This document shows positions 18,447-20,631 of a stretch of DNA of 64,000 bases, one piece after another (position 1 is the stretch's first letter; each line of letters begins with the position of its first letter). A program made the translations under genes and the position numbers. The notes under the pieces are model-generated. The model searched no databases and was not told the DNA's origin. It worked only from the letters and a program-made list of their open reading frames with translations. The stretch spans positions 186,001 to 250,000 of the forward strand of contig JAIYDL010000019.1 of the NCBI GenBank assembly GCA_027487515.1, read 5' to 3'. Source of the DNA: Pseudomonadota bacterium. Lineage in GTDB: Bacteria; Bdellovibrionota; Bacteriovoracia; Bacteriovoracales; Bacteriovoracaceae.

Positions 18447-18902
18447 ATGGATTTTCATAAAATTGTCATCGCCACCAACCTCGAAGAAGAAGAGCGTGAA
18501 ATCCTCCTCCAGTTGCGCGAGATCAAATTCCCCGACGAAGCCCAGGTTCACATGATCCACGCCTTCGAGCTCCACACGATGAACTTCGATTTCCTGCCGG
18601 CCCTGCGCTTGTCGAAAGAGGATTTTGCGACGATCGAGCGCTGGGGAGAGGACAAGCTCCAAAACCTCGCCGAAGAGCTTGGCCTCTTTCCCAACCCGAA
18701 TCTCGTCATGAAGTGCTTCGTTTCTTCCAACCCGAAGCAGGATTTTCTGTCGTACGCCGATCGGCACGGGGCGGACTTGATCATCGCGGGGTCCAAGGTG
18801 CGGGAAGGCTTCGAGGCCCTCTTTGAGACCTCGTTCACGAAGTTCCTCCACAGCTATTCTCGGACGAATCTCTTGCTCTTAAGACCCACTCGGCGGCCAT
18901 AG
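18447..18902 (+). CDS. Universal stress protein (UspA family)
   Basis: KIVIATNLEEEE ... RHGADLIIAGSKVREGFEALFETSFTKFLHSYSRTNLLLLRP; ATG 18447. Confidence 0.85.
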   Translation: MDFHKIVIATNLEEEEREILLQLREIKFPDEAQVHMIHAFELHTMNFDFLPALRLSKEDFATIERWGEDKLQNLAEELGLFPNPNLVMKCFVSSNPKQDFLSYADRHGADLIIAGSKVREGFEALFETSFTKFLHSYSRTNLLLLRPTRRP

Positions 18903-18934
18903 CCGCTTCGCTCAACCCAGAAAAAGAGGTCAAC

Positions 18935-19702
18935 ATGCCAGCCTTGTCCTACGGTCAATATTCGCTCGTATTTAACATGCTGTCGTTTTCGGTCGCAGCG
19001 ATGTTCGGCGCCTTCGCATTCTTTGCGATGTCGCAAAAGCTCATCGGCGCCAAGTACCGGGCCTCCATGGTTGTCTCGTCCGTCGTCGTTCTGATCGCGG
19101 GCTATCACTACTACCGGATCATGGGGAGCTGGGAAGGTGCGTACCATCTCGTGGACGGGGCTTACGTCCCTTCGGGAATGCCCTTTAACAGTGCCTACCG
19201 GTACGTCGACTGGATTCTCACGGTTCCTCTTCTCCTCGTAGAGTTGGTGCTTGTCCTTGGACTGGAGAAAGGTAAAACGGGCCCCATGCTCACAAAACTC
19301 GTCACCGCAGCGGTACTCATGATCGCTCTTGGGTACCCAGGAGAAATCTCGATTGACCCCACCACGAGACACATCTGGGGGGCCCTTTCATCGATCCCTT
19401 TTGTCTACATTCTCTATGTCCTCTGGACCCAACTTCATGGGGCGACCCGGGGGTCGACAGCGAAGGTCATGAGTCTCTTCGAATCCGCCCGGAGGGTGCT
19501 TCTCGTGACCTGGGGTTTCTATCCCATCGCCTACCTCATCGGGACCTTCGGTGGCGCCCACTCCGCGAGCGCTGCCGTGGGAGTCCAGGTTGCGTATTCC
19601 GTCGCTGACGTTACCGCTAAGGCCCTCTTCGGCGGCATCATCTTTGCCATCGCCTATGAGAAATCCCGCGCGGACGGCTCTCTGCCGTCGCTCCACGGGT
19701 AG
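18935..19702 (+). CDS. Microbial rhodopsin, proteorhodopsin/xanthorhodopsin-like proton pump
   Basis: Seven hydrophobic helices; helix C RYVDWILTVPLLLVEL (D92/T96/E103 = DTE), His58 in GYHYYRI, helix G YSVADVTAKALFG (D225, retinal Lys229). Confidence 0.97.
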   Translation: MPALSYGQYSLVFNMLSFSVAAMFGAFAFFAMSQKLIGAKYRASMVVSSVVVLIAGYHYYRIMGSWEGAYHLVDGAYVPSGMPFNSAYRYVDWILTVPLLLVELVLVLGLEKGKTGPMLTKLVTAAVLMIALGYPGEISIDPTTRHIWGALSSIPFVYILYVLWTQLHGATRGSTAKVMSLFESARRVLLVTWGFYPIAYLIGTFGGAHSASAAVGVQVAYSVADVTAKALFGGIIFAIAYEKSRADGSLPSLHG

Positions 19703-20631
19703 TGTCGTCGGAAACCAAGATCCAGCGCTTTGCCCCCTCCGACCTGCTTCGGGGAGGGGCGACGACCGCAGCTCTCGCATTTGCGTTCCATCTCTCCGTT
19801 TGCTACTTTCTGCCGACGCTTGAGCCGTTCATGGCAGTCCTGCTCACGGGGATTGTCTTCCTCGGATTTCCTCACGGGGCCTTGGACATCTTCCTCATCC
19901 AAGACCTGGGCCACTCCCCCCAGGCCATCCTGGCCATCGTGTGTGTCTACTTACTGGCCATACTGGCGATGGTTTTCTTCTGGATTCTTTTTCCAAACGG
20001 AGCGCTTCTCTTTTTCATCGCCTACTCTTGCTTTCATTTTGCGCAGAGTGACCTTTCTCGGGAAGAGTCCGGATCACTCTTTTTGATTGTCGAGTTCCTC
20101 GCCCGGCTCCTGGCCCCCTTTTTCATCCCTTTCGGGTTCCACCCAGAGCGATCCCTTAACCTCGCAAGGCAGGTGCAGGATACGGCGTTCTTGAACGCCG
20201 CAAGTCCGCTCTTCCAACCACTCGCCCTCCTCGCCGTTGTCCTTTCCTCCATGATCTTCATCCGAGGTCTCTCCAAGAGACGCATGCCAGAATCAGAATG
20301 GCAGGTGATGACCGTCGAACCGTTGATTGTCTGCATTCTTTTTCTTGTGCTCGATCCGCTCTATTCCCTGAGCATTTACTTTTGCTTCATTCATTCCGTG
20401 AAGCATCTGGTGAATTTCCTTAACTCATCCGTTGCCGTGAGTGGCAAAAAAATCCTGCCGGTTTTGATCCTTCCGATCGTCGCCGTAGTGATGCTTCCTG
20501 TCTTCTTTGACCGAGGCTTTAGCCGGATCGAGGACTCGCTGTTCAAATGGTCCATCTTGATCCTGTCATCCCTCGCTCTTCCGCATGCGATTTTGATTTC
20601 TCTCTGTAAGAGACTGAAGCTGATTGCTTAG
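19702..20631 (+). CDS. blh: Brp/Blh family beta-carotene 15,15'-dioxygenase (retinal synthesis)
   Basis: GFPHGALDIF, YSCFHFAQSDL, CFIHSVKHL; GTG start overlaps rhodopsin stop (TAGTG). Confidence 0.93.
   Translation: MSSETKIQRFAPSDLLRGGATTAALAFAFHLSVCYFLPTLEPFMAVLLTGIVFLGFPHGALDIFLIQDLGHSPQAILAIVCVYLLAILAMVFFWILFPNGALLFFIAYSCFHFAQSDLSREESGSLFLIVEFLARLLAPFFIPFGFHPERSLNLARQVQDTAFLNAASPLFQPLALLAVVLSSMIFIRGLSKRRMPESEWQVMTVEPLIVCILFLVLDPLYSLSIYFCFIHSVKHLVNFLNSSVAVSGKKILPVLILPIVAVVMLPVFFDRGFSRIEDSLFKWSILILSSLALPHAILISLCKRLKLIA

What the first reader, a model, noticed from the sequence alone, without database searches (positions are those of the whole stretch)
18447..20631. UspA - rhodopsin - Blh phototrophy cassette
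Seen: a seven-helix rhodopsin with Asp92, Thr96, Glu103 and Lys229 (DTE proton-pump pattern) and a Brp/Blh protein whose GTG start overlaps the rhodopsin stop (TAGTG), preceded by a UspA gene only 32 bp upstream. Established: DTE proteorhodopsins pump protons, and Blh cleaves beta-carotene to retinal. Inference: a light-driven pump co-regulated with a stress protein, possibly in a non-classical phototroph host. No carotenoid (crt) genes are visible in the window, so beta-carotene must come from elsewhere in the genome or from outside the cell.
Basis: partly seen in the sequence, partly recalled or inferred. Interest (0 to 1): 0.82.

Follow-up and report, generated by a model that had tools for sequence, protein, structure and literature searches.

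The report
Xanthorhodopsin light pump in predator-phylum bacterium
This stretch encodes a light-driven proton pump of the xanthorhodopsin type and the enzyme that makes its retinal pigment, in a relative of predatory Bdellovibrio-like bacteria whose genome also holds all the genes to make the needed carotenoids; the adjoining stress-protein gene is an older neighbour, not part of the light system.

Summary
18935-19702 is a seven-helix rhodopsin with D92/T96/E103/K229. 19702-20631 is a Brp/Blh dioxygenase whose GTG overlaps the rhodopsin stop. A Usp-like gene ends 32 bp upstream.
The rhodopsin is not a generic proteorhodopsin. Its sequence, tree and predicted fold put it in the xanthorhodopsin (XR) family, in a Bdellovibrionota clade that is sister to the clade of Kin4B8 (solved with a zeaxanthin antenna).
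Usp is not part of the system. The nearest relative (no rhodopsin) has the same gene order, Usp to fadA, without rhodopsin and blh. No other rhodopsin locus examined has a Usp neighbour. That relative also lacks crtYEIB at its matching site.
Most likely this is a green-light proton pump with home-made retinal. It keeps the antenna Gly149 but has an Arg (R187) at a carotenoid-contact position, unique among its 120 closest relatives.
XR operons and rhodopsin-bearing Oligoflexia genomes are already published. This is a new member of a known kind, in a little-studied host group.

The parts
18935..19702 (+). xanthorhodopsin-family rhodopsin, 255 aa; H58, D92 (acceptor), T96, L100 (green tuning), E103 (donor), G149 (antenna window), Y200, T204, F205, R187, D225, K229 (Schiff base)
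   Evidence: PF01036 126.7 bits; Kin4B8 best PDB hit E 6e-95; residue mapping; tree; AF2 model and Foldseek best hit 8i2z, TM 0.96
19702..20631 (+). Brp/Blh beta-carotene 15,15'-dioxygenase, 309 aa, GTG start overlapping the rhodopsin stop (TAGTG)
   Evidence: PF15461 129.9 bits; TIGR03753 143 bits over cut-off; H58, H112, H231, H235, H295 invariant in nine homologues
18889..20717 (.). stretch holding rhodopsin-blh that has no counterpart in the nearest relative G012, where the colinear interval holds unrelated sequence
   Evidence: blastn of window against L135: matches end at 18888 and resume at 20718
18447..18902 (+). Usp-like gene, 151 aa; ancestral neighbour, not part of the rhodopsin module
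   Evidence: PF00582 24.1 bits, borderline; 79% identical gene at the same place in rhodopsin-free G012
17900..18415 (+). putative lipoprotein, 171 aa, 31 bp upstream of usp; could share a transcript; also ancestral (75% identical in G012)
15639..17795 (-). TonB-dependent receptor, divergent; conserved in rhodopsin-free G012 (87%), so not specific to the light system
   Evidence: PF00593 130 bits
20722..21888 (-). fadA-like thiolase, convergent right-hand flank, 97.7% identical in G012
   Evidence: ORF; synteny; fadA name from sequence inspection

Best explanation
The 18935-20631 gene pair is a two-gene xanthorhodopsin phototrophy unit. Blh cleaves beta-carotene, made by crtYEIB elsewhere in the genome, into retinal. 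Retinal binds K229. Green light drives outward proton pumping through D92 (acceptor) and E103 (donor), adding to the proton motive force of a heterotroph. Blh is probably translationally coupled to the rhodopsin through TAGTG. G149 leaves the carotenoid window open, and the genome has CrtW-like and CrtZ-like enzymes, so an oxygenated carotenoid antenna is plausible. The pocket's far end differs from its relatives (S184, R187), so antenna use is less certain than pumping. Usp is a pre-existing neighbour downstream of which the pair lies. Shown: gene content, residues, family, phylogeny, predicted fold, genome-wide crt genes, and the missing loci in the sister genome. Inferred: pumping, colour, antenna, expression and benefit.
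For: Family and fold: PF01036; PDB best hits are all XR-type (Kin4B8, psXR, GR, thermophilic rhodopsin, XR); AF2 pLDDT 90.5 and Foldseek to 8i2z with TM 0.96, rmsd 1.2. Motif H/D/T/L/E/K invariant in the 120 closest proteins. Phylogeny: window with L014 98/82, Bdellovibrionota clade 98/96, with the Kin4B8 clade 99/98. Retinal supply: Blh; crtY TIGR01789 284 bits over cut-off, crtI TIGR02734 693 bits over cut-off, crtB PF00494, crtE PF00348 in one run. That contig is correctly binned: its neighbour gene is 83% identical to the sister genome. CrtW NF045690 224 bits, under its cut-off of 350; CrtZ-like PF04116 with relatives named beta-carotene 3-hydroxylase. Relatives G010, G028 and L015 keep crtE-crtI-crtB-cyclase-crtZ-rhodopsin-blh together.
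Against: No expression, retinal or proton data. R187 and S184 depart from relatives at positions that contact the carotenoid in Kin4B8 (PMC12308411), so the antenna may be lost or changed. No sigma-70-like promoter and no credible terminator by simple scan. CrtW is below its curated cut-off and CrtZ has no NCBIfam hit. The organism is known only as a draft genome (93.9% complete).
Confidence: 0.85

Rival explanations
1. Functional module of stress protein and light pump: Usp, rhodopsin and Blh form a co-regulated operon in which Usp tunes or protects the light system.
For: 32 bp gap, same strand, ribosome-binding-like sequence before rhodopsin; 31 bp between the lipoprotein gene and usp.
Against: Usp and lipoprotein occupy the same place in rhodopsin-free G012; a Usp profile finds no Usp beside any other rhodopsin locus examined; relatives place crtZ or divergent crtY there instead.
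Confidence: 0.1
2. Sensory or otherwise non-pumping rhodopsin.
For: None found beyond the general possibility.
Against: Donor E103 and acceptor D92 retained as in pumps; XR-clade placement; overlapping blh; no transducer gene seen adjacent.
Confidence: 0.04
3. Pump works without any carotenoid antenna: the pocket is decaying, and CrtW/CrtZ products serve photoprotection only. (A variant of the best explanation, not exclusive of pumping.)
For: R187 unique and S184 rare among the 120 closest; crtWZ on a contig apart from rhodopsin while relatives keep crtZ beside it.
Against: G149, Y200 and T204 kept, G and Y being the main criteria for carotenoid binding in PMC12308411; an Arg could still bond to a keto or hydroxyl group.
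Confidence: 0.35

Closest known systems
Kin4B8 xanthorhodopsin (PDB 7ytb, 8i2z)
   Same: 62% identical; same fold (TM 0.96), H/D/T/L/E/K set, antenna Gly and Tyr204 equivalent; sister clade in the tree
   Different: Kin4B8 has N188, Y191, S208, Y209 in the carotenoid pocket; the window has S184, R187, T204, F205
Salinibacter xanthorhodopsin (3ddl) and Gloeobacter rhodopsin (6nwd)
   Same: XR family, proton-pump residues, antenna glycine
   Different: 54-55% identical; hydrophobic residues at the lower pocket where the window has T/F; keto-carotenoid binders
XR-crtEIBY-brp operon of Tardiphaga (PMC7701988) and similar XR operons
   Same: same parts: XR, beta-carotene pathway, brp/blh
   Different: here split over three contigs: rhodopsin-blh, crtYEIB, crtWZ
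Bacteriovoracaceae rhodopsin clusters (L014/G022, L015, L017/G010, L038/G028)
   Same: 84% to about 70% identical rhodopsin followed by blh
   Different: relatives have crtZ or a divergent crtY directly upstream instead of Usp; G010/G028 (and by position L015) use a PF18916-type lycopene cyclase

Membership tests
Xanthorhodopsin family (light-driven proton pump, often with antenna) | Microbial rhodopsin fold with Schiff-base Lys | tested here: met
   PF01036 126.7 bits; seven helices, K229 in the seventh; Foldseek TM 0.96 to 8i2z
Xanthorhodopsin family (light-driven proton pump, often with antenna) | Asp acceptor, Thr, Glu donor and helix-B His | tested here: met
   D92, T96, E103, H58; invariant in the 120 closest
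Xanthorhodopsin family (light-driven proton pump, often with antenna) | Phylogenetic placement with XR/GR rather than PR | tested here: met
   PR-like rows fall on the other side of a 100/100 branch; window within the XR side with GR, Salinibacter and Kin4B8
Xanthorhodopsin family (light-driven proton pump, often with antenna) | Small residue opening the antenna window (XR Gly156, Kin4B8 Gly153) | tested here: met
   G149
Xanthorhodopsin family (light-driven proton pump, often with antenna) | Remaining carotenoid-contact residues as in Kin4B8 | tested here: inconclusive
   Y200 kept; T204/F205 in place of S/Y; S184/R187 in place of N/Y
Xanthorhodopsin family (light-driven proton pump, often with antenna) | Light-driven proton transport and carotenoid energy transfer | not testable with these tools
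   needs expression and spectroscopy
Brp/Blh beta-carotene 15,15'-dioxygenase | Family profile over curated cut-off | tested here: met
   TIGR03753 143 bits against 95; PF15461 129.9 against 28
Brp/Blh beta-carotene 15,15'-dioxygenase | Conserved metal-binding-type histidines | tested here: met
   H58, H112, H231, H235, H295 invariant in nine homologues
Brp/Blh beta-carotene 15,15'-dioxygenase | Cleaves beta-carotene to retinal | not testable with these tools
   needs enzyme assay
Universal stress protein (Usp) | Usp profile | tested here: met
   PF00582 24.1 bits, cut-off 24.0, barely
Universal stress protein, ATP-binding subclass | ATP-binding motif G-2x-G-9x-G(S/T) | tested here: not met
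   by inspection GSKVREGFEALFETS lacks the second and third Gly (sequence); this excludes only the ATP-binding subclass, not Usp as a whole

The most novel reading that the evidence does not exclude
In this lineage the xanthorhodopsin has re-specialised its antenna pocket: the Arg at 187 and Ser at 184, together with a CrtW/CrtZ-like pair whose CrtW was not found in 11 relatives searched, would pair the pump with a keto-hydroxy carotenoid instead of the zeaxanthin-type antenna implied by crtZ next to rhodopsin in its relatives.
Probability: 0.2. Interest if true: 0.6.

Novelty: new member of a known kind. Interest (0 to 1): 0.42.

Why it matters
It places a complete, self-sufficient retinal phototrophy kit in a family related to predatory bacteria, where light-derived energy could help cells survive between meals (inference; predation by this organism is not shown). 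It gives a sister genome lacking the kit at matching sites, a natural comparison. It also suggests that Kin4B8, the model hydroxy-carotenoid antenna rhodopsin, comes from a Bdellovibrionota bacterium: rhodopsins of three genomes of the window's phylum are 91-92% identical to it.

Tried and rejected
Usp as a conserved partner: rejected. TonB receptor as a carotenoid importer: rejected as specific to this system, because it is conserved in rhodopsin-free G012. Mis-binning of the crt contig: rejected. Recent transfer visible by composition: not supported, GC3 of rhodopsin (72), blh (67) and crt genes (68-80) is close to flanks (70-79), and no shared repeats were found flanking the rhodopsin-blh or crt sites; so gain in G000 and loss in G012 cannot be told apart here. 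Rhodopsin relic in the G012 interval: none convincing. Promoter and terminator scans gave nothing above shuffles. Literature searches for rhodopsin with Bacteriovoracaceae, Bdellovibrionales and predatory bacteria found no dedicated paper, but PMC7701988 lists Oligoflexia genomes among phototrophy-gene-bearing ones. The original Kin4B8 paper is not held.

Full report
Observation. The rhodopsin (18935-19702) carries H58, D92, T96, E103, D225 and K229. Its Blh partner starts on a GTG that overlaps the rhodopsin stop. The Usp gene ends 32 bp upstream; its Pfam score only just passes (24.1 against 24.0).

What the rhodopsin is. The best solved relatives are all xanthorhodopsin-type: Kin4B8 (E 6e-95), psXR, Gloeobacter rhodopsin, thermophilic rhodopsin and Salinibacter xanthorhodopsin. 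The AlphaFold2 model (pLDDT 90.5) matches zeaxanthin-bound Kin4B8 with TM 0.96. In the tree the window groups with L014, a Bacteriovoracaceae MAG (98/82), inside a Bdellovibrionota clade (98/96). That clade is sister to one holding Kin4B8 and three genomes of the same phylum (joint support 99/98). Kin4B8 is 91-92% identical to those three, which suggests Kin4B8 itself comes from this phylum; I could not check its source record. L100 at the tuning position predicts green absorption (established for proteorhodopsins; inference here).

Antenna. PMC12308411 names Gly153 and Tyr204 of Kin4B8 as the main criteria for a carotenoid site, with Ser208 and Tyr209 binding the 3-hydroxy group and Asn188 and Tyr191 at the other ring. 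The window keeps Gly149 and Tyr200, has Thr204 and Phe205, and changes the other end to Ser184 and Arg187. Among the 120 closest proteins Arg at 187 occurs only here. Y209F in Kin4B8 still bound zeaxanthin with weaker transfer, so T/F is compatible with binding. R187 is the real uncertainty.

Where the pigments come from. The same genome has crtY, crtE, crtI and crtB in one run on contig C12 (L011 13466-17926, minus strand), and a CrtW-like and CrtZ-like pair on contig C16 (L087 6240-7372). C12 belongs to this genome: a neighbouring gene is 83% identical in the sister genome and 55-65% in thirteen other congeners. In relatives G010, G028 and L015 the genes lie together as crtE-crtI-crtB-cyclase-crtZ-rhodopsin-blh; in G022/L014 crtE and crtY are divergent from rhodopsin-blh.

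Usp and the empty sites. The closest relative found, G012 (97% complete), has no rhodopsin, no Blh and no TIGR01789 cyclase. Its contig L135 is colinear with the window: ThrE, lipoprotein, TonB receptor, lipoprotein, Usp (79%), then fadA (97.7%), fadB, gpx. Nucleotide similarity stops at window 18888 and resumes at 20718; the G012 interval holds unrelated sequence. The crtYEIB locus is likewise missing: flanks at L011 13439 and 18132 sit 39 bp apart in G012 (L166 15070/15109). CrtW was found in none of 11 relatives searched. So the light kit was gained or lost as a set at separate loci, while Usp stayed. A Usp profile found Usp next to no other rhodopsin locus examined. GC3 values do not mark the genes as foreign, so direction is open.

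How common. Rhodopsin matches occur in 36 of 379 genomes of the phylum, 35 over the family cut-off, in 3 of 26 of the genus. Rhodopsin-bearing Oligoflexia MAGs were listed in PMC7701988 (the table pools bacteriochlorophyll and rhodopsin genes and its column marks are not in the held text), and XR-crt-brp operons are well known, so this is a new member of a known kind.

Mechanism and confidence. Light-driven proton pumping with internally made retinal: 0.85. A working carotenoid antenna: about even. Usp as functional partner: 0.1. Pumping, colour, antenna, transcription and benefit are inferences; gene content, residues, family, tree and synteny are computed results.

Noticed in passing
L119:8233-10200 (G049); also L141, L146, L149, L152, L159: Lycopene cyclase (PF05834) and Blh (PF15461) are fused in one 655-aa ORF beside a rhodopsin. 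Long matches spanning both parts occur beside rhodopsins in several other Bdellovibrionota genomes; L160 instead shows a 287-aa Blh-like ORF. A protist CrtI-CrtB-CrtYc/d-Blh fusion is known (PMC10016063).
   Followed up: partly
L153, L154, L157 (G304, G302, G305): Rhodopsins 91-92% identical to Kin4B8 carry Ala where Kin4B8 has the antenna Gly153: a natural test of the antenna window.
   Followed up: partly
L135:5598-6440 (G012): Where the window has rhodopsin-blh, G012 has a short ORF that looks like a DNA-binding regulator on the minus strand.
   Followed up: no
L029: A record titled Klebsiella pneumoniae MAG carries an XR rhodopsin that groups with Myxococcota and other proteobacterial rows; probably a mislabelled genome.
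   Followed up: no
window 25336-25983 (-): ORF with about four repeats of a GYAHNGxITNGYGTCIKLGAFNEYQVG unit.
   Followed up: no
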